A stretch of 40,905 bases of DNA from Deltaproteobacteria bacterium (lineage in GTDB: Bacteria; JAEEML01), in NCBI GenBank assembly GCA_016283195.1, contig JAEEML010000040.1, forward strand, positions 1-40,905. Reading direction: 5' to 3'. Positions 3,329-29,392 of the stretch are shown here, one piece after another. The notes below the pieces were generated by a model. That model saw only the letters and a list, made by a program, of their open reading frames with translations. It searched no databases and was not told the origin of the DNA. Numbering within the stretch: the first letter of the stretch is position 1; the number at the start of each line of letters is the position of its first letter. The translations under genes were made by a program, and so were the position numbers.

Positions 3329-3734
3329 ATTTCTCCTTGGCGCAAAAGCGCATAACGCACCGCTATTGGTGCAAAATTATTAAAGAAATTATAAATTGTG
3401 GATTGAGGAAAAATTAAATATGTGTTAAGATTAAATAAAGCGACTGAACTGAACTGAACTGAACTGAACTGAACTGAACATGATGTACATACCCTTAAAA
3501 GCCCGTAAAAGCTAGGGGAGTAAGTAGCACAAGCTGGGAGAACTTAGCAAGGGGGAAAAGCGGCGGAGCGGACAAGTAAAATTTATCATCGTGTTTTTGC
3601 GGGCAAAATCTAAAAAGCCTGGGAAAGCGGATTGCCTAAAAGTTAAGACCTCTGCTAAAGTGCTGCCGCGTTGGCCTTAGATATACCATGACGGCTAAGG
3701 TAGCGCGTAAGACACTTTAAAGAAAGGCTAACGT
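3329..3734. other. Divergent intergenic region between two FISUMP genes
   Basis: Holds the promoters of both flanking lipoprotein genes. On the minus strand a TATAAT element (about 3389-3394) lies upstream of the left gene, with no clear -35 box. The centre carries a pentanucleotide tandem repeat (3443-3477). No open frame with a credible start is visible. A weak GG-N10-GC match at 3622-3635 was not accepted as a sigma-54 promoter. Confidence 0.5.
3443..3477. repeat. Pentanucleotide tandem repeat (ACTGA)7
   Basis: Seven perfect ACTGA units plus a partial eighth (AC), in the intergenic region between divergent FISUMP lipoprotein genes. A change in copy number would shift promoter or operator spacing by half a helical turn, so it is a candidate contingency locus. 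Confidence 0.95.
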
Positions 3735-4643: not shown

Positions 4644-5714
4644 ATGCGCATTCGAGTCACTAATGATGTCATCTTTCGGGCCCTCTTTGGCAATCCGGCC
4701 CACAAAGAGGTGCTTCTCGCCTTAATCAATGCCGTTCTTGGCGATAGCGGGTCAGAACTCATAAGGAGTATTGAGATTGTCTCGCCTTATAACCTCCCGG
4801 AAGTCTATAAGGCCAAGGAGAGCATTTGCGATATTAAAGCCATAAGCGAAAGCGGAAAGATTATCGACATTGAAATGCAGATGCTAAGAAAAGCCGATTA
4901 CATCGACCGCTCCATTTATTACTGCGCCCATAATTTAAGCTCCCAGCTTGAAAGAGGTAAATCTTACGGCGAACTGCACCAGGTAATCTGCATCAGCATT
5001 CTGGACTTTGAACTCTTTCCGGACGATGAAGAGCCCCATCATACCGCTCAGATGGTTGACCGCATAACCGGGAAGCCGCTAAGTGAAAAGATGGCTATTC
5101 ACTTTCTGGAGCTCCAAAAAGCGGAAAAATATGCTAATATTACAGCCGAACTTGCCGCTTGGGTGCGTTTTTTTGCCCACGCGCACGAGGAGAATTACAT
5201 GGAAAGCGCGGTTTCGGCCATCGGTGAGGCCCATAGCTTTTACCTGGAATTACTGAATAACACCAAGCTGGTAGGAGTGGCTGCCGACCGTGAACGGGCT
5301 TATCGTGACTGGATATCGCTGATTAAGAATAAAGAAAAGGATGATAAGAGAATTGCCGAAGCCAAGGAAAAGATAGCCGAAGACGAGAAAAAGATAGCTG
5401 AAGCCGAGAAAAAGATAGCCGAAGACGAGAAAAAGATAGCTGAAGCCGAGAAAGAGATAGCTGAAGGTAAGAAAGAGATAGCTGAAGGTAAGAAAGAGAT
5501 AGCTGAAGGTAAGAAAGAGATAGACTTAGTGCGAATTCAGCTTGAGCAAGAGCAAGCTGAGTTGCAAATACAAAGACAAACTATTGAAGAACAAGCAAGA
5601 CAAGAAAAAGCACTGGAAGCAGCTAAAAAGATGCTGGCTCTAAACATGGAGACTGCCACCATCTCCGCTGTAACTGGCCTTTCTGTAAGCGATATTGACG
5701 CTCTAAAGTGCTAA
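4644..5714 (+). CDS. Rpn family recombination-promoting nuclease (PD-(D/E)XK nuclease family transposase) with coiled-coil tail
   Basis: 356 aa. The N-terminal part (about 1-230) is typical of the PDDEXK_2/Rpn group: MRIRVTNDVIFRALFGN opening, then the catalytic strand pair CDIKA (D63) and IDIEMQM (E77, Q79), an E-x-Q variant of the nuclease core. These enzymes cleave DNA and stimulate RecA-independent recombination; they are labelled transposases, but no terminal inverted repeats are visible here. Residues 235-297 form nine near-identical heptads (KKIAEDE, KEIAEGK) predicted as a long charged coiled coil, encoded by 21-bp DNA repeats. A conserved-looking ~45-residue C-terminus follows. RBS AGGAG lies seven bases upstream. 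A sigma-54 promoter match precedes it. Confidence 0.85.
   Translation: MRIRVTNDVIFRALFGNPAHKEVLLALINAVLGDSGSELIRSIEIVSPYNLPEVYKAKESICDIKAISESGKIIDIEMQMLRKADYIDRSIYYCAHNLSSQLERGKSYGELHQVICISILDFELFPDDEEPHHTAQMVDRITGKPLSEKMAIHFLELQKAEKYANITAELAAWVRFFAHAHEENYMESAVSAIGEAHSFYLELLNNTKLVGVAADRERAYRDWISLIKNKEKDDKRIAEAKEKIAEDEKKIAEAEKKIAEDEKKIAEAEKEIAEGKKEIAEGKKEIAEGKKEIDLVRIQLEQEQAELQIQRQTIEEQARQEKALEAAKKMLALNMETATISAVTGLSVSDIDALKC
5346..5534 (+). repeat. In-frame 21-bp repeats encoding heptads
   Basis: Nine consecutive 21-bp units inside the Rpn-family gene. Units 2-5 alternate KIAEDEK and KIAEAEK; units 6-8 are nearly identical copies of KEIAEGK. High DNA identity between adjacent units suggests recent expansion by slippage or unequal recombination, changing coiled-coil length without a frameshift. 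Confidence 0.9.
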
Positions 5715-5798: not shown

Positions 5799-6704
5799 CT
5801 AGCCCTTAACCGCCCCGGCGGTGAGGCCGGAAACGAGATTTCTTTGCAAAGCAAAGAAGAGAGCCATAACGGGAATGGAGACGATGAGGGCGCCGGCGGC
5901 AAAGTGGCCCCAATCGACAGAATATTCGCCGATGAATTGCTGCAGCATCACTGGCAAGGTGTAAGAAGTTTCGTTGCTCATAAAGGTAGCGGCCAAAATA
6001 AATTCATTCCAGCCGGTCATAAAAGAGAAGAGGAAGGTGACGGCCAGAGCCGGCTTGCAAAGGGGCATGACAATTTGCCAAAAGACCCGAAAATGGCTGG
6101 CTCCGTCGATAATGGCCGCCTCTTCCAGCTCTTTGGGAATGGTATCGAAATAGCCCTTTAAATTCCACACACAGAAGGGAATGGAAGTAGTGGAATATAC
6201 AAGAATAAGTCCCAGCATTTGGTCCAGAAGACCCAATTTTTCAATAATGATATAAAGAGGGATCATCATCATGGTGCCGGGGAACATCTGGGTGACCAAA
6301 AAGGCCATGAGCCCGGCTCTTTGCCCGGGGAATTTAAAGCGGCTAAAGGCATAAGCGGCGGTGCAAGCCAAAAGAATACCCATGAGGGCGGTGGCAATGG
6401 AGACCACCAGGCTGTTAAAGAGCTGGCGGCCAAAGAGCCAAACCTCTTTATCTTCGGTGATTTTTGTCTCTTCGCCTTTATCGTTGGTAATGACCTTTTC
6501 CACCTTGATATTTTTGCTGCTGGTGAGCACCTCTTTAAAATTTTTGAGCGAAAACTCGGTGGGGAAGGGATTTACCGAGAGGTTAAAATTATTGCTGGTA
6601 CCCAGGGCAATTTGCACCACTTTTAACACCGGGAAGATGGTGATAAAGGTAAAGCAAATCAGGAAGATGTGCACAAAGATGAATTTAACTTTTTGCTTAT
6701 TCAT
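5799..6704 (-). CDS. malG: Maltose-type sugar ABC transporter permease (MalG-like)
   Basis: 301-aa inner-membrane permease of a CUT1-type sugar importer. One TM segment near the N-terminus (about 9-32) is followed by a periplasmic loop of ~55 residues rich in Lys/Glu, then five more TM segments. The EAA loop that docks the ATPase is present at about residue 194 (EEAAIIDGASHFRVFWQIVMP), and the C-terminus VKG is typical of MalG. It starts 3 bases after the stop of the MalE-MalF fusion, so both are in one operon. No MalK-type ATPase is encoded in the window; it must be shared or lie elsewhere. Confidence 0.92.
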   Translation of the reverse strand: MNKQKVKFIFVHIFLICFTFITIFPVLKVVQIALGTSNNFNLSVNPFPTEFSLKNFKEVLTSSKNIKVEKVITNDKGEETKITEDKEVWLFGRQLFNSLVVSIATALMGILLACTAAYAFSRFKFPGQRAGLMAFLVTQMFPGTMMMIPLYIIIEKLGLLDQMLGLILVYSTTSIPFCVWNLKGYFDTIPKELEEAAIIDGASHFRVFWQIVMPLCKPALAVTFLFSFMTGWNEFILAATFMSNETSYTLPVMLQQFIGEYSVDWGHFAAGALIVSIPVMALFFALQRNLVSGLTAGAVKG

Positions 6705-6707
6705 GGC

Positions 6708-8966
6708 TTATCTCCCCGACCCTTCCGTGCCTTTGGTCACCCGGTTGGTAACTTGTGAATATAAGAACAAAATAAAGAAGATGATGATGGAATAGGCGGC
6801 GGCGTAACCGTAGCGGTTGCCGCGCTCGAAGGCCCAGCGGTAGGCCTCGGAAATGAGGATATCGGTGGCTCCGCCCGGCGCGCCCTTGGAGACCAAATAG
6901 ATGACGTTGAACTGATTAAAGGTCCAAACGGTGCTCAAAATGATGGAGGGGAAGAGAGCCGGCTTTAAAAGCGGCAGAGTAATATGGCGGAATTGTTGCC
7001 ATTTACTGGCGCCGTCCACCTTGGCCGCTTCGTAAAGGTCTGAAGGGATAGATTGCAAAGCGCCCAGAGAGACCACCATCATAAAGGGGAAGCCCAGCCA
7101 GCAGTTGGTGGCCAGGTTGGTGAGAAAAGCGGTGCCGGTATTGGCCCACCAGTCGATATTCAGGCCAAAGATGTGGTTGATGACGCCGTAGCGCTGGTCA
7201 AACATACCGCGCCAGATGATGGCGGTGATGTAGCTGGGGACAGCCCAAGGAATGATGAGCAGCACGCGGTAGATACCTTTAAATTTAAGCAGCGGCTCCT
7301 TCAAAATGAGGGCGAGAGCGAGGCCTACAGCCACGGTAATCACCAGGTTGGAGACGGTCCAGGCGATGGTGATTAAGAGTTTATAATAAAAGTTGTAATT
7401 ATCGGGGAAGGGATATTCGCCGGAAAAGAGAATATCAATAAAGTTTTTAATGCCTATGTAGTAGTAATCATTTTGGAAATAGCGGAAAAAGGCTAAAGAG
7501 ATGGCATAGACAAAGGGAATAAAGACCACCAGCCCCATGGAGATGACTGTTGGCGCTATGTAGCCGTAAGCAAAGATATTTTCCCTAATATCTTTGAAGA
7601 ATTTTTTGGTTTTTTCTTTCCTGACAATGGCATAGGCGATGAGGGCGATTAAAAGGAGGCCAAACAGTATGGCGATATGGCAGATAAAGGTGCCGATGCC
7701 GTTATCGCCTTTATCTTTGAGCGCCTGGCCCTCATCCTGGGCGATGATGTAATGTTCCACGGTGCGCTGGCATTTATTGAGCGCTGCTTCCGGAGTGCTT
7801 TTGTCGTTAATCACCTCAGCGAGAGCCAGGTCATAAGGGGCCCAAATAAGCCCCATAATGGGGATATTGGGCATGGGTACGGCATTTTCCATCTGGTGCA
7901 TAAAGGTGCTGACAATTTGGTCGTTTTTTACTTCCGGGCGCTCGTAAATGGCTTTATTAGCTACAGTTTGGTGGCCCTTTTCCTGGCGAATCTGGGCGGC
8001 CCAGTCGCTGGTTAAGGCGTTCATAACTTTGACGGCGGCCAGCGGTTTTTGCGTGGTTTTGGAGAGCAAAAAGGCCTCAGCGCCTAAGAGGGGCTGGGCT
8101 CTTTTGCCGCTCTCGCTGATAACCGGTAAGAGGGCCAGGCCGTAATCGACATTTTTATTAATTTCTGACAAAAACCAGGGGCCGGAGATGACCATGGCCG
8201 CCTTGCCTTCATTAAAAAGCGAAGTGATTTGGTAACCTTGGATGCCCTTGGGCACCACCGGATCGGCCGGATCGATGAGCGTTTTCATAAAGCGCAGGGC
8301 CTCGGCGTGGGCTTTGGTATTTAAAACGGCCTTATGGCCCTCAAAAAACTCCCCGCCAAAGCCGAAAATCCAGGGGGCGTGGGAATAGAACTTGCCCACT
8401 TCATAAACCAGGCCAAAGCGGTTTTCTGCGTTTTTAGTAAATTTTTTGGCCAAAGTAATCATCTCGGCCGAAGTTTCCGGCGGATTATCAATGAGCTTTT
8501 TGTTATAAAAGAGAGCCAGACTCTTAAAGGTGGTGGGGAGGCCGTAAAGCTCATTTTCAAAAGTTAAAGCTTCCATGGTTTTAGGGAAGAAGCGGCTATC
8601 CAGATCGGTTACGCCGTCCAGCTGTTTTAAATAAGAATCAATGGGCTGAATGCGCTTATTCACTGCCCAATCGCCCACGCGGTCGTGGGCAAAGATAAAA
8701 ATATCCGGCCCGGTGCCGTGGGGAATAGCCGAATCGAGCTTGCTGGCAAAAGCTTCATTGGGAATGGAGAGCACTTCCACGGCTATCTCTTTTTGGCTCT
8801 TATTATAGGCTTCGACCGTGGCTTCAAGTGCCGCTTTTTCAGCATCGCGGTATGAATGCCAAAGCCTGATAATTACTTGGGAATTTTGTGATTCATCGGC
8901 CTGAGCCGAGGGCCAGGCAAAGAGCGTAACGAGCAGAGCCACAGCGAATCTTAAGAAGCGCGTCAT
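6708..8966 (-). CDS. MalE-MalF fusion: sugar-binding protein joined to ABC permease
   Basis: 752 aa from the ATG at 8966, chosen because it follows GGGAGA and begins a clean signal peptide (MTRFLRFAVALLVTLFAWPSAQA); a 33-residue longer frame runs through the promoter and is unlikely. Residues about 25-405 are an extracellular solute-binding protein (family 1, MalE-like: IIRLWHSYRDAEK, GPDIFIFAHDRVGDWA, AAMVISGPWFLSEI). A TM helix (about 420-440) links it to a MalF-type permease with an EAA loop at about 646 (EAAKVDGASKWQQFRHITLP). The binding domain is thus tethered to the channel. It forms an operon with malG. The promoter carries two LacI-type boxes. Confidence 0.9.
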   Translation of the reverse strand: MTRFLRFAVALLVTLFAWPSAQADESQNSQVIIRLWHSYRDAEKAALEATVEAYNKSQKEIAVEVLSIPNEAFASKLDSAIPHGTGPDIFIFAHDRVGDWAVNKRIQPIDSYLKQLDGVTDLDSRFFPKTMEALTFENELYGLPTTFKSLALFYNKKLIDNPPETSAEMITLAKKFTKNAENRFGLVYEVGKFYSHAPWIFGFGGEFFEGHKAVLNTKAHAEALRFMKTLIDPADPVVPKGIQGYQITSLFNEGKAAMVISGPWFLSEINKNVDYGLALLPVISESGKRAQPLLGAEAFLLSKTTQKPLAAVKVMNALTSDWAAQIRQEKGHQTVANKAIYERPEVKNDQIVSTFMHQMENAVPMPNIPIMGLIWAPYDLALAEVINDKSTPEAALNKCQRTVEHYIIAQDEGQALKDKGDNGIGTFICHIAILFGLLLIALIAYAIVRKEKTKKFFKDIRENIFAYGYIAPTVISMGLVVFIPFVYAISLAFFRYFQNDYYYIGIKNFIDILFSGEYPFPDNYNFYYKLLITIAWTVSNLVITVAVGLALALILKEPLLKFKGIYRVLLIIPWAVPSYITAIIWRGMFDQRYGVINHIFGLNIDWWANTGTAFLTNLATNCWLGFPFMMVVSLGALQSIPSDLYEAAKVDGASKWQQFRHITLPLLKPALFPSIILSTVWTFNQFNVIYLVSKGAPGGATDILISEAYRWAFERGNRYGYAAAYSIIIFFILFLYSQVTNRVTKGTEGSGR

Positions 8967-8998
8967 AACAGAATCTCCCGCAGATAGGCACCAAAGCC

Positions 8999-9044
8999 GC
9001 CTAAGCGTTATAGCCCGCCGGAGTCGTAACTGCAAGCGCTTAGA
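8999..9044 (-). promoter_or_regulatory. Promoter of the malEF-malG operon overlapped by two LacI-family operator boxes
   Basis: Minus-strand -35 TTGCAG (9030-9035) and -10 TATAAC (9007-9012) are separated by exactly 17 bases, with a start near 9000, 34 bases upstream of the ATG. Box 1, TGCAAGCGCTTAGA (9031-9044), matches the LacI/CcpA-type consensus TGWAARCGYTWNCA at 12 of 14 positions and covers the -35. Box 2, core TAAGCGTTA (9002-9010), covers the -10. Their CG centres are 31 bp apart, three helical turns. Confidence 0.7.
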
Positions 9045-9113
9045 TGGGGAAATTGTGGCCACCACGTTAATTTTGGGCGGCTTTAGGCGGCTAGGACATT
9101 GAGGGTAAAGGTG

Positions 9114-10868
9114 TTATTTACCTTGCCTCGCGGCAAAGGCTTCTTCTTTATTATAAGTGAGGCCATAGCCGATTTTAAAATGGCCGGGGATGGAAACAGG
9201 CAATTTGCCGCTGGGTTTTGAGAGCCCCAGCACCGTTTCGGCGGCGGCGCGCTGGGCCTCTTCGCGGCTGCTATAGCTCAAAATATAGGCACTCACTTTG
9301 GAAGTGCGGCTAAAGAGATAAGGCGAGCCCATGTTTACCACAATAAACTTTTTATCAGGCAGGCGGCTCATCACCTGGGTGAGCAGATTAAGCTGATGGT
9401 TATTGATAATGGCAAAAATAATAACCTTGGCCTTATTGCCCTGAGCAACAAGACGTTCTAAATAACCTTTATTTTTCCCTCTGTTACCAATTAATGGTAT
9501 GGCCATGGTGGCCAGATTGCCCTTTTCGCTCATGGTATTTAAAAAAGTGCCGTTTGGTGCCACCACCAGAGTGCGCGGAGCAGCGCTATTTGGGGCTAGC
9601 GGCAGAATATTATGCTGATTTTTTAGCATGGTGATGGATTTATAAGCTATTTCCTGGGCCATTTGGCGATGCAGAGAATTTTCGGCTAAATGTTTATCCA
9701 CCTCAATGAGAGGTAGCGGCGTTTCATCCATAATACCGCGCTTTATTTTGAGGCGTAAAATACGCCGCACCGATTCTTCCAAGCGGGCCATAGTGATGGT
9801 GCCGTTTTCTACGGCCTCTTTGAGTGCGTTAAAAACTTCCACTTTGTTTTCCGGGTACCAGAGGATCATGGCCATATCACCGCCGGCTAAAATGGTTTGC
9901 ACTGCCGCCTGGCCGCAGCCATAGGAATTTAAAATGCCCTGCATTTCCAGGCCGTCGCTGATGATAACGCCGTCAAAACCCAGCTCTTCGCGTAGTATTT
10001 GGGTGAGTATTTTATGCGAGAGGGTGGAGGGGAGAGTTGGATCACCGGTTACCTCCGGCACAGCAATATGGGCGGTGACAATGGCATCGAGCCCAGCTTC
10101 AATAGCTGCTTTAAAGGGCACCAGCTCCACTTGATTGAGCCGCGTTTTGTCGGCCCTTATCACCGGCATATTTTGGTGCGAATCTTCGTTGGTATCGCCG
10201 TGGCCGGGAAAGTGCTTGGCCACGGATATAAGGCCGGTTTCCTGTTGGCCGCGCACAAACCAAGTGCCAAATTCGGCCACTTTTTGCGGATCTTCGCCAA
10301 AGCTTCTGGTGCCGATAACCGGGTTTAAATAATTGGAATTTACATCGAGCACTGGCGCTAAATTCATATTAAAACCAATGGTTTTTAAATCAATCCCCTG
10401 AGCCAGACCGGCCATATAAGCCATTGTCGGCGAAGTGGTGGCTCCAAGAGCCATATTGCTGGGCACTACCATGACATGGTCGGTTATGCGGGCCACATTG
10501 CCACCTTCTTGATCGAGAGACATAAAAAGCGGGATATTGCCCTGATTGGCTTTATTTATGGCTCTGATAAAGGCTGCCGCCTGGTGAGCCGATTCAATAT
10601 TGCGCGAAAAGAGGGCAACAGCGCCGGGCTTTTTGCTGTGCAGAATTTCTTCAATATGTGGCGCCATCTCCTTGCCGCCAAAGCTCACCATAAGCAGCTG
10701 GCCGATTTTGGCCTCCAGATCCATGGTGGCGATAATTTTATCTATGCGCGCCTCTATGGCTGGATCGTAGCCGGCGGTCGGAGCGGCTTTAGCGGCCGTA
10801 AAGTGGCCTAAAAACAACACAGCGGCGATTGAAAAATAAAGGTGATTTAAAAAAGCCCAATATTTCAT
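9114..10868 (-). CDS. Glycoside hydrolase family 3, beta-N-acetylhexosaminidase (NagZ type, with C-terminal domain)
   Basis: 584 aa with a Sec signal (about 1-28, ending AKA). It is predicted to cleave beta-1,4-linked N-acetylglucosamine from peptidoglycan fragments in the periplasm or at the surface. GH3 TIM-barrel motifs are clear: FMSLDQEGGNVARI, KHFPGHGDTNEDSHQNMP (the His/Asp general acid-base dyad specific to NagZ-like enzymes) and DGVIISDGLEM (nucleophile Asp). Residues about 410-575 form the GH3 C-terminal alpha/beta sandwich, as in the long NagZ proteins of Bacillus rather than the ~340-aa cytoplasmic enterobacterial form. It overlaps the upstream M23 peptidase gene by 4 bases (ATGA), implying translational coupling and a joint role in wall turnover. 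Confidence 0.88.
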   Translation of the reverse strand: MKYWAFLNHLYFSIAAVLFLGHFTAAKAAPTAGYDPAIEARIDKIIATMDLEAKIGQLLMVSFGGKEMAPHIEEILHSKKPGAVALFSRNIESAHQAAAFIRAINKANQGNIPLFMSLDQEGGNVARITDHVMVVPSNMALGATTSPTMAYMAGLAQGIDLKTIGFNMNLAPVLDVNSNYLNPVIGTRSFGEDPQKVAEFGTWFVRGQQETGLISVAKHFPGHGDTNEDSHQNMPVIRADKTRLNQVELVPFKAAIEAGLDAIVTAHIAVPEVTGDPTLPSTLSHKILTQILREELGFDGVIISDGLEMQGILNSYGCGQAAVQTILAGGDMAMILWYPENKVEVFNALKEAVENGTITMARLEESVRRILRLKIKRGIMDETPLPLIEVDKHLAENSLHRQMAQEIAYKSITMLKNQHNILPLAPNSAAPRTLVVAPNGTFLNTMSEKGNLATMAIPLIGNRGKNKGYLERLVAQGNKAKVIIFAIINNHQLNLLTQVMSRLPDKKFIVVNMGSPYLFSRTSKVSAYILSYSSREEAQRAAAETVLGLSKPSGKLPVSIPGHFKIGYGLTYNKEEAFAARQGK

Positions 10869-24240: not shown

Positions 24241-24866
24241 CTAGTCCTTAACGCGGCGCACAGAGAAAGCGCTACTATCATTGCTGACATAGTTCACGAG
24301 CGCAATATCATTGCCTAAGGATAGGTAGTAGGCGTTGTTGCTATTGTCCTCCGTAGCCGACCAGAAGAAGGCGTTAATACCCCAAAAGTGATAACTGCCA
24401 TAGTTGTAGACACCGGCTGGCAAAGCGCCCAAGGCGGTACTGTTGGTAACCTGAGCTTGGTATTTATTTTTCCACACCGGATTTTTAGCTGCTAAAGCTA
24501 AAAAAGCCGGATTGGGCAGTGACTTATTTTCATTACTGCCAGCAGCACTTAAAAGACTTTGAAAATCGACCTTTTGCGGTAAATGCCAACCTTTGGGGCA
24601 TACCTTCATAGCATCTTCCCAAATATAGAGGCAGCCGTATTTTTTTACAAAATCAGGATCTTCTTTTGTATTGGCATAGCAGCTTAAAGAGCTGCCGTCA
24701 TTACCGACGCTAGCCGCCATATTTTCGGCCATCCAGGTTGAACCGCCTATAGTTACCGCCTTAAAATCGGGAATAACCTTGGCTTCACCCTCTTTCCCGG
24801 TTGGCTTATTACAGGCGGCACAGGCCAAAATTGTTAAAATAAAAGAAATTTTTAAAGTCTCTCCAT
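24241..24866 (-). pseudogene. FISUMP-domain lipoprotein with frameshifted start (phase-off or decaying)
   Basis: The FISUMP body is intact from about 24828 to the stop: TWMAENM, CLYIWEDAMKVCPKGWHLP, ALPAGVYNY, FWSATED, ending VRRVKD, where the paralogs have VRC. The only well-placed start, ATG at 24864-24866 with AGGAG seven bases upstream, reads ATG GAG AGA CTT TAA and stops. In the body's frame the same DNA reads ETLKISFILTILAC, a perfect lipoprotein signal lacking its Met. Removing one GA dinucleotide from the GAGAGA tract joins ATG to this frame (METLKISFILTILAC). Alternatives are initiation at ATT or at TTG 24828, both lacking a basic N-region. The reading-frame analysis is direct; phase variation is inference. 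Confidence 0.75.
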
Positions 24867-24968
24867 TATTTTGCTCCTATGGGTAAAATTCCATGTTAGG
24901 CGCTTTGGGGCAACTAACGGCGGAATATTAAGGTAACTAAAGTAGTAATTCAAGAAGTACACTGGCGC

Positions 24969-25013
24969 AAAAAAAGATAACCAACCGGCAGGTCGCATCT
25001 ATTCCTGCCGGTT
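24969..25013 (-). terminator. Terminator at left island boundary
   Basis: A 10-bp perfect stem AACCGGCAGG/CCTGCCGGTT (24983-24992 with 25004-25013), followed on the minus strand by GGTTATC and seven T residues. It ends the minus-strand island operon and overlaps the left 17-bp direct repeat. It is probably the original atpZ terminator. Confidence 0.85.
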
Positions 25014-25016
25014 ATA
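25000..25016. repeat. Left direct repeat of the island (attL-like)
   Basis: TATTCCTGCCGGTTATA, identical to 29169-29185. Weaker similarity (CCAACC..AGGT) extends a further ~20 bases upstream in both copies. Confidence 0.85.
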
Positions 25017-25035
25017 GTCACTGATGTTTGGTTAA

Positions 25036-25494
25036 CTACTTTTTAATTGATTTCCATGCTTCTATCGCCTTGATTATTTGTGGATCTTTTTCTGGAACAT
25101 AGCTGGGATTCTTCTCCAAATTTATTTCCCCGATATTTGATAGGAGAGGTATTGCAATACTGTCAAAAATATCGCTAGCTGTCCCACCATATTTTTGCGT
25201 GTCAACGCGATAATATAAATACGAGATAAAGGGATAAGGATCACGAAGCGGTTGTTCTGTGCCTCCATAGTAAAAAAATAAATTGGCAAAATTGAGAACG
25301 TCGTTTTCGGTTAAACAGCATTGTTGCAAATAATCGAACCAATAGGGAAAGATAGTATTCCAGCCATAATCCCTGATCAACTTCTGTGCCTTGTCACTGT
25401 GCTCGTAGCTGTTATCTGCATCAAAAGTTGGATCATCAAATTTACAATTGAAAAGGTAGCTTGTTGTTTTTATAATTTCTTCTGTATCGTTCAT
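25036..25494 (-). CDS. Small acidic protein, possible immunity protein
   Basis: 152 aa from Met 25494 (MNDTEEII), preferred because GGAG sits eight bases upstream; an ATG at 25509 would add five residues and overlap the upstream gene by 13 bases. Strongly acidic N-terminal half, aromatic-rich (YGWNTIFPYWFDYLQQ, FFYYGG), no signal or TM helix. I do not recognise a family. Position as last gene directly behind a toxin-like gene, small size and acidity are what immunity proteins of polymorphic toxin systems look like; this is inference only. A strong terminator follows. Confidence 0.6.
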   Translation of the reverse strand: MNDTEEIIKTTSYLFNCKFDDPTFDADNSYEHSDKAQKLIRDYGWNTIFPYWFDYLQQCCLTENDVLNFANLFFYYGGTEQPLRDPYPFISYLYYRVDTQKYGGTASDIFDSIAIPLLSNIGEINLEKNPSYVPEKDPQIIKAIEAWKSIKK

Positions 25495-25496
25495 AT

Positions 25497-26003
25497 CTAT
25501 TGTCTCCATTTTGAGTCCTTATGGAACAGTTTAGGATTGCGATTACACATTTCCTCTAATATTTTATCCGTTTTTTCCATCGACTTTATATCTGGCCGGT
25601 AATGACCACTATTATTGTCGACAGAATAAATTTTTCCGTTTCTGAAGGTTATCATTCCGGCATTTTGTACTTCAGGATCTTTACCACCGATTAGTGTCGG
25701 ATGAGGTGATCTTTTCAAAGGATTAATTGGATTACTTCGCTTGCCAAAGATAATATCTCCGCTTTGAGACATCACGTAGGCATATTGACCGTTTGCCTTG
25801 CTGCCTTCAATGTAAAATGAATCATGTTGCACGGCATTTTCCAGCATTGTGGCTGTAGGATTTTGGAAATAGCCGGTAGTTGGATTGTAAATATCAGGGT
25901 CTTTTTTGTCATTATTCAACTCCGCATCAACAACGTGATAAGTATCGGCATAAGGTTGAGAACCTCCTGCACCGGAGTATGAGCTGGTACTTTTAGTGCC
26001 CAT
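25497..26003 (-). CDS. Toxin-like protein with SGHYRP motif
   Basis: 168 aa. The N-terminal third is Ser/Gly/Asp/Asn-rich (GTKSTSSYSGAGG). The C-terminal half reads HPTLIGGKDPEVQNAGMITF, followed by NGKIYSVDNNSGHYRPDI. The combination 'H..L.gG..v..AG.i....G.i..i.n.SGHY.P' recalls C-terminal domains of bacterial polymorphic toxins and effectors as I remember them; I have not verified this. No secretion signal, and too short to be a full polymorphic toxin, so it could be an orphan cassette or a phage-type protein. It starts one base after the DUF4417 stop codon and is followed by the acidic gene. Confidence 0.6.
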   Translation of the reverse strand: MGTKSTSSYSGAGGSQPYADTYHVVDAELNNDKKDPDIYNPTTGYFQNPTATMLENAVQHDSFYIEGSKANGQYAYVMSQSGDIIFGKRSNPINPLKRSPHPTLIGGKDPEVQNAGMITFRNGKIYSVDNNSGHYRPDIKSMEKTDKILEEMCNRNPKLFHKDSKWRQ

Positions 26004-26004
26004 A

Positions 26005-26682
26005 TCAGATCACCCCTCCATGCATTCGCTTTGTCCAGTTTGGGTAGTTAATAAATTTGGCATAATCTAAATATTGGCCAAAAACCTTGTCAGGCATTGC
26101 TCCATAGACAAGAACAACAAGCGGTTCAAGAGTGTCCATCATGGCTTCAAGCCCAGCTTCAAAATAATATTTGTCTTCTCTGCTGGAAATACAACCGTAG
26201 GTTCCAATAGCCAGAATACTGTGTTTTTCAGCTCCGAGAAAGGCTACCTTTTGTGGAAAGTATTTTGTTGTATATGTGTACTCGTTGCCCCACCTAATTT
26301 GTGGTATCACATACTGACCTCGACGCTGATAGTATCCACCAATAGCTCTGTTGCGATAAATATTGGTTAATTGCACACTTAGTGGAGCATCCCTGTACAA
26401 TGAGCAATCAGGACTGATCATAGCTGCAAATCGCCCGAAATCATCAATATATGCCTCAGGTGTTCTTAGTACTTCACTAAAATTTACATCCATTTCGCAG
26501 AAGCCAATAGCTTCATTGGTGCTCGGAGCTCTATTGCGCATAGAAAATGGAGTAATTCCTGGCGGAATAGTAATTCTAGCTGGTGCTTTTATGATCGGAA
26601 TTCCCAAGGGAAGATCAAATTTTGCTCCAGCAACCAATTTAGGATTGCATCCATCATCAATTATTGCTTTATTTTTGCTCAT
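26005..26682 (-). CDS. DUF4417 family protein
   Basis: 225 aa from Met 26682, chosen because GGAGGG lies eight bases upstream; an upstream in-frame Met (26727) has no RBS. The core matches my memory of DUF4417: FGRFAAMISPDCSLYRDAPLSVQLTNIYRNRAIGGYYQ, then VIPQIRWG, ILAIGTYGCISSRED and VVLVYGAMPDKVFGQY near the end. The family is common on phages, plasmids and islands of Firmicutes and other bacteria, with no known activity. First gene of a three-gene unit with tight spacing (1 base, then 2 bases). Its upstream region carries a palindromic operator shared with the xre gene. Confidence 0.8.
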   Translation of the reverse strand: MSKNKAIIDDGCNPKLVAGAKFDLPLGIPIIKAPARITIPPGITPFSMRNRAPSTNEAIGFCEMDVNFSEVLRTPEAYIDDFGRFAAMISPDCSLYRDAPLSVQLTNIYRNRAIGGYYQRRGQYVIPQIRWGNEYTYTTKYFPQKVAFLGAEKHSILAIGTYGCISSREDKYYFEAGLEAMMDTLEPLVVLVYGAMPDKVFGQYLDYAKFINYPNWTKRMHGGVI

Positions 26683-26846
26683 ATTATACGCCCTCCTATA
26701 AGCGCAGTTTTTAAAAGGCAAAAGCATTTGTAGTTGTCCTTTGTCTTAGGATATACTTGCATTGTTAGAAATTTGCATATTTCTAACGCCTCAATTACAC
26801 GTCGTTGCCAAAATGAGTCTTCAATCATTGTTTGCTCTTCTAACCC
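26683..26846 (-). promoter_or_regulatory. Intergenic regulatory region between immA and the DUF4417 gene
   Basis: Contains a perfect 9-bp inverted repeat GTTAGAAAT/ATTTCTAAC (26764-26772 and 26779-26787) around TTGCAT. The half GCAT(A/C)TTTCTAAC recurs in the xre promoter region at 27975-27987. It most likely binds the XRE repressor and controls the downstream DUF4417-toxin-immunity genes. No strong -35/-10 pair was picked out. Confidence 0.6.
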
Positions 26847-27548
26847 TTATTTAGAAGGATCAAATTCTTTTTCCAAAATGTTCAGCTCCCTTAATCGATA
26901 GAGCATTGGGCTATAGTTTACTCCGAACAGATATCCGAGTCCTTTGATGTCGTCTGCCATCCTTTGCTCAAATGGAATCGGGTAGCCACTATAATACAGA
27001 AGATTTCGCGCTCCATATTCAACAGCTTCTCGTGGCATGAGAAAAGCTGCTGCCGCATAATTAGCCTGGTGTTCGAGCCAATAAAGAGCATTATTCTTGT
27101 TGGTTTGCTCCCTGTTGTAATCTGTAAAAGATCGTGACATATGCCCGTCGCATTCGAAAGCAGACTTGTGTTTGGCAAAATGAAAGCACTCATGCATTAC
27201 CGTAAAGTTTTCAATAAAATGGTCGCGTTTTTTAGAACTTTCGCTTAAGCTCTGGTCTATTATTATCGTGCCCCCGTAGAATAACTTAAGTTTTGGCATC
27301 ATATCAATAGTCCAAGACCGATTGGCGATTTCAGGCCAGACGTAGAACGGTCCTGTATTGAAAATCGTTGCTCCAAGAAATGAGCGGGTTGGTGATAGAA
27401 ATTCAAAAGCTATTCTGGCACCAAGTAGATCAACTATGTCATACACATCGACCCTTGATGGCTTTTTTAACCTGCCAGCATCGTAACGTTGATTTAGCTT
27501 ATTAGCTAATTCCTCAAGCTGTGCATGTGAATACGGGTAGTAAATCAA
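26847..27548 (-). CDS. ImmA/IrrE family metallo-endopeptidase
   Basis: 233 aa. Zinc-protease signature MHECFHFAKH (HExxH, about residue 119) with the downstream third-ligand helix EHQANYAAAAFLMP (Glu, about 160). ImmA-type proteases cleave a partner XRE repressor (as ImmR in ICEBs1, or DdrO by IrrE) in response to DNA damage or signalling, releasing mobile-element or stress genes. It lies 11 bases before the end of the xre gene in the same direction, the usual arrangement. Its C-terminal ~60 residues (MADDIKGLGYLFGVNYSPMLYRLREL) are typical of the family. Confidence 0.9.
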   Translation of the reverse strand: MIYYPYSHAQLEELANKLNQRYDAGRLKKPSRVDVYDIVDLLGARIAFEFLSPTRSFLGATIFNTGPFYVWPEIANRSWTIDMMPKLKLFYGGTIIIDQSLSESSKKRDHFIENFTVMHECFHFAKHKSAFECDGHMSRSFTDYNREQTNKNNALYWLEHQANYAAAAFLMPREAVEYGARNLLYYSGYPIPFEQRMADDIKGLGYLFGVNYSPMLYRLRELNILEKEFDPSK

Positions 27549-27559
27549 ATACGTTCTCC

Positions 27560-27937
27560 TTAGCTTTTCTTACTTTCTTCCAACATTCTTATGATTCTTT
27601 CCCATTCTTTTTCACCCGCACCGGAATCTCGTGCAATACGAAGTGCAACGCGAGATTTATTCTGAGCCATAATGTAATCGGCAATATCTGGTGAAACGGA
27701 ATTTTTTTTATTCCCTGCTGCCAGGTCAAAAAGGTAATCAGTTTCTTCCCGACTAAGGTTTAAGGCTGTGGCTATCAAATATATCTTTTCCTTTTCCGGC
27801 GGGTAGCGATGATTATTTTCTATATCGCTCATATACGCTGGTGCTATGCCAAGTATTTCGGCAAGCTTACGCAGGTTAATCTTGGCAGCCAATCGTTTTT
27901 CCCTGACATAGTTGCCAAATGTTTTCTCTTCTTCCAT
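27560..27937 (-). CDS. XRE-family transcriptional repressor
   Basis: 125 aa from Met 27937 (MEEEKTFG), preceded by GGGGAG at six bases; a further-upstream Met lies inside the operator. The helix-turn-helix occupies about 7-65 (FGNYVREKRLAAKINLRKLAEILGIAPAYMSDIENNHRYPP). The C-terminal helical part (IADYIMAQNKSRVALRIARDSG) is of the kind cleaved by ImmA proteases. It is paired with immA and likely autoregulated through the operator at 27956-27987, just downstream of its own -10. Confidence 0.9.
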   Translation of the reverse strand: MEEEKTFGNYVREKRLAAKINLRKLAEILGIAPAYMSDIENNHRYPPEKEKIYLIATALNLSREETDYLFDLAAGNKKNSVSPDIADYIMAQNKSRVALRIARDSGAGEKEWERIIRMLEESKKS

Positions 27938-27955
27938 GTTGCTCTCCCCTTTAAA

Positions 27956-27987
27956 GTTAGTTGTATGCACATTCGCATCTTTCTAAC
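27956..27987. promoter_or_regulatory. Operator of the xre-immA promoter
   Basis: GTTAG (27956-27960) and CTAAC (27983-27987) flank ATGC/GCAT half-sites. The 13-mer GCATCTTTCTAAC (27975-27987) differs at one base from the operator half at 26775-26787. It lies 8 bases downstream of the xre -10 box, well placed for repression. Confidence 0.55.
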
Positions 27988-27994
27988 AAGGACA

Positions 27995-28022
27995 ATGATA
28001 GCTCCCTTTTAGAATTTGTCAA
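27995..28022 (-). promoter_or_regulatory. Promoter of xre-immA
   Basis: Minus strand TTGACA (28017-28022), 16-base spacer, TATCAT (27995-28000). Confidence 0.8.
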
Positions 28023-28072
28023 TAACCAGTTCGCGAAAATCTAACACTTTTTATTTTTACTTGCTTGTGCAA

Positions 28073-28097
28073 TAAAAAAAAGGCTGATTCTGCCTTT
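28073..28097 (-). terminator. Isolated minus-strand terminator-like hairpin
   Basis: AAAGGC/GCCTTT stem (28079-28084 with 28092-28097) and seven-base loop, followed on the minus strand by eight or more T residues. It lies upstream of the xre promoter and 5' of the divergent Tpt1 gene, with no known minus-strand gene feeding it. Confidence 0.5.
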
Positions 28098-28194
28098 GAA
28101 TCGCATATTCGTTTTGCAAGTGGTTGCTAGACATGGTCTTTGTTACGATTTAACTATATCATCAGCATCTTTTATGCGAAAGGATAGTAATGAT

Positions 28195-29139
28195 ATGGTA
28201 GCTAAGGAGATTAGCCAGTATATCTCACTGATTCTGCGTCATAAACCGGAAATAATAGGCATTACTCTTGATGAACACGGCTGGGCTAATGTAACAGAGC
28301 TGATTGGCGGAGTAAATAAGACATATCCGCTTAATATGGAGGCTCTGGAAGAGATTGTTAGCACTGATGAAAAAAAGCGTTACTCCTTTAATGATGACAA
28401 AACGCTTATTCGGGCTAATCAGGGGCACTCTATCCAGGTTGATGTAGAACTTCAAGAAGTAGTACCGCCTAAATATCTGTATCACGGAACTGGGAAAAAA
28501 TACGTAAATTCCATTGATAAACATGGACTTTTACCGAAGTCTAGGCTATATGTACATCTTTGCGAAGACATAGATACAGCTATTAAAGTTGGTTCCCGTC
28601 ATGGTCAGCCAATAGTATACCGGGTTTTAGCTGGGCTGATGTTTAATGCTGGTATGAGTTTTTATAAATCTGCCAATGGTGTTTGGTTAGCCAAAAGAGT
28701 TCCGACAGAGTATTTTAGAAAGGAAGAATGTATGTCAACCGGAACCGCTGAGATTGTACGAGAATTAAAAACTGCCTTTAAGTCTGGTTTAGATGCTGAA
28801 GAAGTAGCAGCAACAGTTTTATCCCGCTACTCATGGAATGAGTTACAGCCGGCTCTTATAGCCATATTGCTGGATGATTCTCTCCCAAGGAATTATTATG
28901 AAATGACAGCCGGGATATTCTGGGAAGCAGTTCTTGATGGCCAGCAAATACAAAAAGAAATAGTGGTGGGCTTATTGTATTACCGCCTGGGCGACAAAAA
29001 AGCGCCATATGATAATAACCTTATTTGGAGCATTGCGACAGAATTGTATAGCCTTGATTATGCCGATTCGGAGTTTAATCCGTTTTACGATGCCGGGATT
29101 TTAAAAGTGCTTGGTGACTACGGAATAACTTTTTCGTGA
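28195..29139 (+). CDS. Tpt1/KptA RNA 2'-phosphotransferase fused to an unrecognised C-terminal domain
   Basis: 314 aa from Met 28195 (MVAKEISQYISLILRHKPE; AAAGGA ten bases upstream; Met at 28177 is an alternative). Residues 1-178 are KptA: LRHKPE, IRANQGHS (about 72-79), YHGTGKKY (about 96) and KSRLYVHL (about 116-122; usually R-x-H-V-H-L, so one His is Tyr). KptA removes a 2'-phosphate from RNA using NAD and can ADP-ribosylate RNA ends. Bacterial members are usually ~180 aa. Here ~135 extra residues follow, acidic and Trp/Tyr-containing, with no domain I recognise. An ATG at 28732 preceded by AAGGAAGA could also start this C-terminal part separately. Accessory location in the island, divergent from xre. 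Confidence 0.85.
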   Translation: MVAKEISQYISLILRHKPEIIGITLDEHGWANVTELIGGVNKTYPLNMEALEEIVSTDEKKRYSFNDDKTLIRANQGHSIQVDVELQEVVPPKYLYHGTGKKYVNSIDKHGLLPKSRLYVHLCEDIDTAIKVGSRHGQPIVYRVLAGLMFNAGMSFYKSANGVWLAKRVPTEYFRKEECMSTGTAEIVRELKTAFKSGLDAEEVAATVLSRYSWNELQPALIAILLDDSLPRNYYEMTAGIFWEAVLDGQQIQKEIVVGLLYYRLGDKKAPYDNNLIWSIATELYSLDYADSEFNPFYDAGILKVLGDYGITFS

Positions 29140-29167
29140 TAGTTTTCCAAAGCGGCCAACCAGGTAG

Positions 29168-29392
29168 TTATTCCTGCCGGTTATAATCTCTCACAATGCC
29201 GATAATAATGAGTGCCGCGCAAATAGTGGCAAAGATAAAAGCTCCCACCTGGCACCAGGGCGCCAGGCCGTAATGGCTATCGAGACGCCCGCCCAGATAG
29301 ACAAAAAGGCCGTAAATAAGCCCCAGTTCCAGGCCGATGGAGCTGTAGCGTAGAGCCAGATTCCACATCTTTTTGTCATCTTTATCAGTCAT
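29168..29392 (-). CDS. atpZ: AtpZ/AtpI-like F0F1-ATPase assembly protein
   Basis: 74 aa with two TM helices (about 14-33 SSIGLELGLIYGLFVYLGG and 45-66) and the charged loop DSHYGLAPWCQVG typical of the small ATP-synthase accessory family. Its last codons (Y-N-R-Q-E-stop) lie inside the 17-bp direct repeat that bounds the island to its left, so the gene end appears to be a reconstituted attachment site. It follows the lamin-tail lipoprotein gene by 27 bases on the same strand. No atp structural genes are in the window. Confidence 0.85.
   Translation of the reverse strand: MTDKDDKKMWNLALRYSSIGLELGLIYGLFVYLGGRLDSHYGLAPWCQVGAFIFATICAALIIIGIVRDYNRQE
29169..29185. repeat. Right direct repeat of the island (attR-like), within atpZ
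   Basis: TATTCCTGCCGGTTATA, identical to 25000-25016. Flanking island bases CCAACCAGGTAG can pair partly with it (AACC..AGG/CCT..GGTT), giving atpZ a substitute but degenerate terminator stem without a T-run. Confidence 0.85.

What the first reader, a model, noticed from the sequence alone, without database searches (positions are those of the whole stretch)
25000..29185. A 4.2-kb island without integrase, inserted at the 3' end of atpZ
Identical 17-bp direct repeats bound an AT-richer gene block. The right repeat is the coding end of atpZ. Joining the repeats restores atpZ with TAG and a perfect hairpin-T-run terminator, which is now stranded 4.2 kb away at 24969-25013. The island brings its own partial stem (CCAACCAGGT) next to atpZ. 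This is the logic of site-specific integration into a gene end, but using a protein gene plus terminator rather than a tRNA, and with no recombinase inside. It may be a small mobilisable cargo element.
Basis: partly seen in the sequence, partly recalled or inferred. Interest (0 to 1): 0.85.

Follow-up and report, generated by a model that had tools for sequence, protein, structure and literature searches.

The report
Integrase-less toxin island after atpZ
A 4.2-kb block of acquired genes (a toxin-immunity operon with its own switch) sits exactly at the end of a housekeeping gene, flanked by a 17-base copy of that gene's end, and most likely is a decayed mobile element that kept its two attachment scars but has lost, or never carried, the enzyme that inserted it.

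Summary
TATTCCTGCCGGTTATA occurs exactly twice in the whole genome, at 25000-25016 and 29169-29185. The right copy is the last codons of atpZ. The left copy is one arm of a 10-bp perfect terminator stem, and joining the copies gives atpZ-TAG with its terminator. No recombinase lies inside.

3' ends of protein genes are standard integrase targets, and elements that keep attL/attR without an integrase are known as CIMEs.

The cargo is kptA, facing HTH-ImmA/IrrE-DUF4417-toxin-immunity. A gut phage/IME scaffold carries the HTH-ImmA-DUF4417 core in the same order, and a viral contig carries all five genes beside a large serine integrase.

The same genome holds a second DUF4417/toxin island (contig C126), after clpB. 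An 84%-identical, mostly synonymously diverged 153-nt copy of the clpB end lies at its far side. This is close to e14 in icd.

No relative of this phylum is available, so the empty site was not seen. One-sided homologous recombination remains a real rival. The genome has only XerC, XerD and one small serine resolvase, so autonomous mobility now is unlikely.

The parts
25000..25016 (.). left 17-bp repeat (putative attL core); displaced copy of the atpZ coding end
   Evidence: exact match to 29169-29185, only two exact copies in the genome
29169..29185 (.). right 17-bp repeat (putative attR core); present coding end of atpZ
24969..25013 (-). perfect 10-bp terminator stem (24983-24992 / 25004-25013), 11-nt loop, T run; reads as terminator of atpZ when the repeats are joined, and now lies behind the immunity-like gene
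   Evidence: joined sequence -28.4 kcal/mol, z -5.6
25036..25509 (-). immunity-like protein, 157 aa
   Evidence: position after the toxin gene; tblastn homologue (38%) in human-gut scaffold MT837245.1
25497..26003 (-). putative toxin, 168 aa, Gly-rich N-terminus MGTKSTSSYSGAGG; no family match
   Evidence: same slot after DUF4417 as toxin-like genes in L108, L113, L101 and Gordonia phage gp2; AlphaFold without alignment failed
26005..26682 (-). DUF4417 protein (ORF opens at 26727; homologues suggest start at 26682)
   Evidence: Pfam PF14386 E 5e-41; 65% to MT835627.1, 74-75% to C126 copy
26764..26787 (.). palindrome GTTAGAAATTTGCATATTTCTAAC, candidate repressor operator upstream of DUF4417
26847..27548 (-). 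ImmA/IrrE (M78) metallopeptidase, HECFH motif
   Evidence: Pfam PF06114 E 1e-4, just above cut-off; capP E 2e-7; 34% to MT835627.1
27560..27937 (-). HTH (XRE) repressor (likely ATG start at 27937)
   Evidence: Pfam HTH_3 5e-9; capH 5e-9; 54% to MT835627.1
27956..27987 (.). second operator-like site GTTAG..CTAAC at the HTH promoter (TTGACA/TATCAT 28022-27995)
28195..29139 (+). kptA/Tpt1 RNA 2'-phosphotransferase with an extra ~130-aa C-terminal part of no known family
   Evidence: Pfam PF01885 3e-41, phrog_5470 2e-74; 67% to Lachnospira eligens KptA over the N-terminal half
29168..29392 (-). atpZ, target gene, intact with TAA stop
   Evidence: Pfam PF09527 4.6e-6; best match in 41 genomes is itself

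Best explanation
The block 25017-29185 is an integrated element that entered at the 3' end of atpZ by recombination across a short shared core. The 17-bp repeats are its attL/attR. The element supplied the last codons and stop of today's atpZ, and pushed the original end, with its terminator, 4.2 kb away. The recombinase was lost or acted in trans, so the block is now a CIME-like remnant. Its cargo is a self-regulated operon: the HTH repressor binds two operators (own promoter, DUF4417 promoter), the ImmA/IrrE protease cleaves the repressor on a stress signal, and DUF4417, toxin and immunity are then expressed; kptA is an accessory gene on the other strand. Shown: repeats, frame, terminator, gene content, absence of recombinase, a second such island at clpB. 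Inferred: site-specific mechanism, loss of integrase, and the regulatory scheme (from the CapH/CapP and ImmR/ImmA families).
For: Exact repeats unique in the genome, with frame and terminator restored on joining. AT-rich block whose right edge matches the repeat. MT835627.1 carries HTH-ImmA-DUF4417 in the same order on a scaffold with a large serine integrase. Viral contig L113 has HTH-ImmA-DUF4417-toxin-immunity directly beside a 573-aa serine integrase, so this operon travels in integrase-bearing elements. The second DUF4417 island in this genome (C126) abuts the clpB 3' end, with a 153-nt displaced clpB fragment at the far side (84% identity; 15 of 20 changed codons synonymous), i.e. a gene end of different origin, as in e14/icd (163 bp). 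Repeat length and target type fit the tyrosine-integrase norm of 8-60 bp at housekeeping-gene 3' ends.
Against: No empty site, excision product or cognate integrase was seen; the genome's only tyrosine recombinases are XerC and XerD. The integrase-bearing relatives use serine integrases, which usually target sites inside genes. The left compositional edge overshoots the repeat. In the clpB island the displaced fragment lacks the last ~10 codons, so its scar is not clean.
Confidence: 0.6

Rival explanations
1. Homology-facilitated illegitimate recombination: donor DNA carrying the toxin operon next to a homologous gene end paired with the host's atpZ (or clpB) end, and the other end joined by microhomology, leaving the old gene end displaced. 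No recombinase is ever needed.
For: Explains the lack of an integrase in both islands and the diverged clpB end with a ragged displaced fragment. Proposed for effector-immunity modules with displaced remnants (PMC5361080).
Against: Experimentally rare. Does not predict an exact 17-bp repeat ending at the stop codon. The related operons sit on integrase-bearing elements.
Confidence: 0.22
2. A small unit that is still mobilised in trans by recombinases of visiting elements.
For: Perfect repeats and intact open reading frames; three DUF4417/toxin modules in one genome at different genes.
Against: No second copy of the 17-mer or of the reconstructed attP in the genome, no candidate recombinase; the clpB island uses another core.
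Confidence: 0.1
3. Chance: the immunity gene's own terminator happens to match the atpZ end.
For: 17-bp repeats occur by chance in about a quarter of simulated windows.
Against: The match lies in frame at the gene end and at the island edge; only two copies in 3.2 Mb.
Confidence: 0.04
4. Xer-dependent element (IMEX) using host XerC/XerD.
For: XerC and XerD are the only tyrosine recombinases present.
Against: The genome's probable dif (GATTTTACATAAGTTACATTATGTAAACT, C18) bears no likeness to the repeat or its flanks.
Confidence: 0.03

Closest known systems
CIME (cis-mobilizable element): decayed ICE/IME with attL and attR but no integration or transfer genes
   Same: flanking short repeats at a gene 3' end, no integrase or transfer genes
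   Different: cognate integrase and parent element unknown; very small; cargo is a DUF4417-toxin-immunity operon plus kptA
IMEs and prophages in 3' ends of protein genes (SGI1/trmE, IMEs in guaA/rpsI/yicC, e14/icd)
   Same: target type, restoration of the gene, displaced end at the far side
   Different: those encode a tyrosine integrase; atpZ and clpB were not among the target genes in the part of the review table read here
ImmR-ImmA / CapH-CapP regulatory pairs
   Same: HTH repressor followed by M78 metallopeptidase, operator-like sites at two promoters
   Different: controls a DUF4417-toxin operon, not ICE transfer or CBASS genes
Gut phage/IME scaffold MT835627.1 and viral contig L113
   Same: same order HTH-ImmA-DUF4417, then (L113) toxin and immunity
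   Different: both carry serine integrases; toxins differ

Membership tests
CIME / decayed integrative element | attL and attR direct repeats at both ends | tested here: met
   17-bp exact repeats, two copies in the genome
CIME / decayed integrative element | no integrase and no transfer genes inside | tested here: met
CIME / decayed integrative element | descent from an ICE/IME with the same att core | tested here: inconclusive
   related operons on integrase-bearing scaffolds but no shared core found
CIME / decayed integrative element | excision/mobilisation by a related element | not testable with these tools
   no reads or cultures
IME / autonomous integrative element | encodes its own integrase | tested here: not met
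   PF00589 and PF00239 have no match on this contig
IMEX (Xer-exploiting) | att resembles the host dif | tested here: not met
Genomic island (empty-site criterion) | uninterrupted site in a relative | not testable with these tools
   genome is alone in its phylum in the held set; best Obg relative 59-61%
ImmR-ImmA / CapH-CapP type switch | XRE repressor adjacent to M78 peptidase with HExxH | tested here: met
   HECFH in 26847-27548
ImmR-ImmA / CapH-CapP type switch | peptidase cleaves the repressor on DNA damage | not testable with these tools
   needs biochemistry
Polymorphic toxin-immunity module | toxin-like ORF followed by immunity-like ORF, toxins interchangeable beside a constant partner | tested here: met
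   DUF4417 followed by different toxin/immunity-like pairs in the window, L108, L101 and L113, and preceded by one in L107
Polymorphic toxin-immunity module | toxicity and specific neutralisation | not testable with these tools
   no assay

The most novel reading that the evidence does not exclude
DUF4417-toxin-immunity operons form a class of small integrase-less cassettes that enter 3' ends of protein-coding genes repeatedly and in a gene-restoring way, moved in trans or by homology at the gene end, with gene-end fragments carried as their targeting sequence.
Probability: 0.12. Interest if true: 0.6.

Novelty: new member of a known kind. Interest (0 to 1): 0.34.

Why it matters
It gives a clean example, from a phylum with one held genome, of toxin-immunity cargo parked at a housekeeping-gene end with no recombinase of its own. 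Together with the clpB case it poses a testable question: are such cassettes integrase-orphaned remnants, or are they inserted through gene-end homology? The recurring DUF4417-toxin-immunity grouping across phages and islands, of which I found no description in the papers held, may matter more than the insertion itself.

Tried and rejected
Empty site in relatives: none available. Same 17-mer in viral contigs: two hits in unrelated sequence without an island context. Other copies of the reconstructed attP in the genome: none. The 2-mismatch genomic matches lie in unrelated sequence. Xer/dif origin rejected. DUF4417 as the missing recombinase: the AlphaFold model (pLDDT 79.6) has no significant PDB match; the weak best ones are TIM-barrel-like (UVDE; a queuine tRNA-ribosyltransferase of a phage at E 8e-3 in the viral library), with no recombinase fold. 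Sequence hits of the DUF4417 profile to the designed Pizza proteins look like composition artefacts. The toxin could not be modelled from one sequence. Third DUF4417 module (C90) has its left flank cut by the contig end and shows no repeat.

Full report
Observation. The repeat TATTCCTGCCGGTTATA is exact at 25000-25016 and 29169-29185 and occurs nowhere else exactly in the 3.22-Mb assembly. The right copy is the reverse complement of the atpZ end (TAT AAC CGG CAG GAA TAA). The left copy is the outer arm of a perfect 10-bp stem followed by a T run on the atpZ strand. Joining the two gives atpZ with a TAG stop inside the terminator loop and a very stable hairpin (z -5.6), whereas the present atpZ end folds no better than shuffles. 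By length alone a 17-bp repeat is not significant in 41 kb: 14 of 60 simulated windows have one. Position, frame and uniqueness carry the case. The AT-rich segment fits as 24461-29240, so the left compositional edge is fuzzy.

Contents. On the minus strand: HTH repressor, ImmA/IrrE peptidase, DUF4417, a 168-aa Gly-rich putative toxin and an immunity-like protein. On the plus strand: a KptA/Tpt1 RNA 2'-phosphotransferase with an unassigned C-terminal part. A palindrome upstream of DUF4417 and a related site at the HTH promoter look like operators of one repressor; the related scaffold MT835627.1 also repeats a motif (AGCGAACACGCT) at its two corresponding places. By analogy with ImmR/ImmA and CapH/CapP (PMC10233336) the peptidase would cleave the repressor on DNA damage and release the toxin operon. 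This is inference.

Origin of the cargo. MT835627.1, a human-gut scaffold, has HTH (54%), ImmA (34%) and DUF4417 (65%) in the same order, with phage-type genes and a 579-aa serine integrase. Viral contig L113 has the complete five-gene order followed at once by a 573-aa serine integrase. In Gordonia phage Rosalind DUF4417 precedes an annotated ADP-ribosyltransferase toxin. The operon is therefore a mobile-element passenger, and its relatives travel with integrases. The window island has none.

A second island in the same genome. Contig C126 holds DUF4417 at 75% identity, preceded by a toxin-like gene (36% to the L113 toxin) and an immunity-like gene, in an AT-rich island that abuts the clpB stop codon. 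At its far side lies a 153-nt copy of the clpB end (E 1e-45, 84%; 20 of 51 codons differ, 15 synonymously). The two clpB ends therefore most likely diverged under selection in different lineages before meeting here, as in e14, whose insertion displaces 163 bp of icd (PMC6379469). A third DUF4417-toxin-immunity module (C90) cannot be judged because the contig ends beside it. Among 386 sampled genomes only this one has clear DUF4417 matches, three of them; that sample is broad and need not include the Clostridia in which such phages are common.

Mechanism. Tyrosine-integrase elements characteristically use 8-60-bp cores and 3' ends of tRNA or housekeeping genes, restoring the gene (PMC5704250). 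Elements that keep both att sites but have lost integration and transfer genes are called CIMEs (same source). That is the best account, at about 60%. The genome's tyrosine recombinases are XerD and XerC only, plus one small serine resolvase, and the probable dif site is unlike the repeat, so the acting enzyme is gone or came from outside. The main rival is homology-facilitated illegitimate recombination, which leaves displaced gene ends without any recombinase and has been proposed for effector-immunity modules (PMC5361080). The ragged clpB fragment suits it; the clean 17-bp repeat at atpZ suits site-specific recombination. DUF4417 itself shows no recombinase-like fold.

Limits. The genome is the only one of its phylum in the held set, and Obg finds nothing closer than about 60%, so no empty site could be examined. 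No reads were available for excision.

Noticed in passing
window 25497-26682; L107 8106-9704; L108 604-2159; L113 5938-7489; L115 5926-7670; L118 5923-7088; L123 577-2428: In most fetched loci (phages, prophages, islands) DUF4417 is followed by a gene whose product starts with a Gly-rich MG(G)xG-type N-terminus and carries a toxin-like C-terminal part, often then an immunity-like ORF; in L107 and L117 that gene precedes DUF4417. A general role for DUF4417 with such toxins seems likely and I found no description of it.
   Followed up: partly
L107 (C126) 6448-9893: Second DUF4417 island at the clpB 3' end with a 153-nt, 84%-identical displaced clpB fragment and a degenerate IS4-like transposase remnant around 6838-7140 (read by eye from the sequence).
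   Followed up: yes
L107 7748-7971 and L101 about 9925-10090: Small homologous ORF (YRC..SCPIGK.CFI.KT..) upstream of the toxin/DUF4417 genes in both elements, absent from the window island.
   Followed up: no
window 28195-29139: KptA/Tpt1 fused to a ~130-aa C-terminal part without family match; the listed phage and plasmid homologues cover only the KptA half.
   Followed up: partly
G000 C18:47218-47241: Probable chromosomal dif site GATTTTACATAAGTTACATTATGTAAACT.
   Followed up: partly
window 5368-5523 and 3443-3480: Tandem repeats: 21-bp units around 5368-5523 and an ACTGA repeat of about seven copies at 3443.
   Followed up: no
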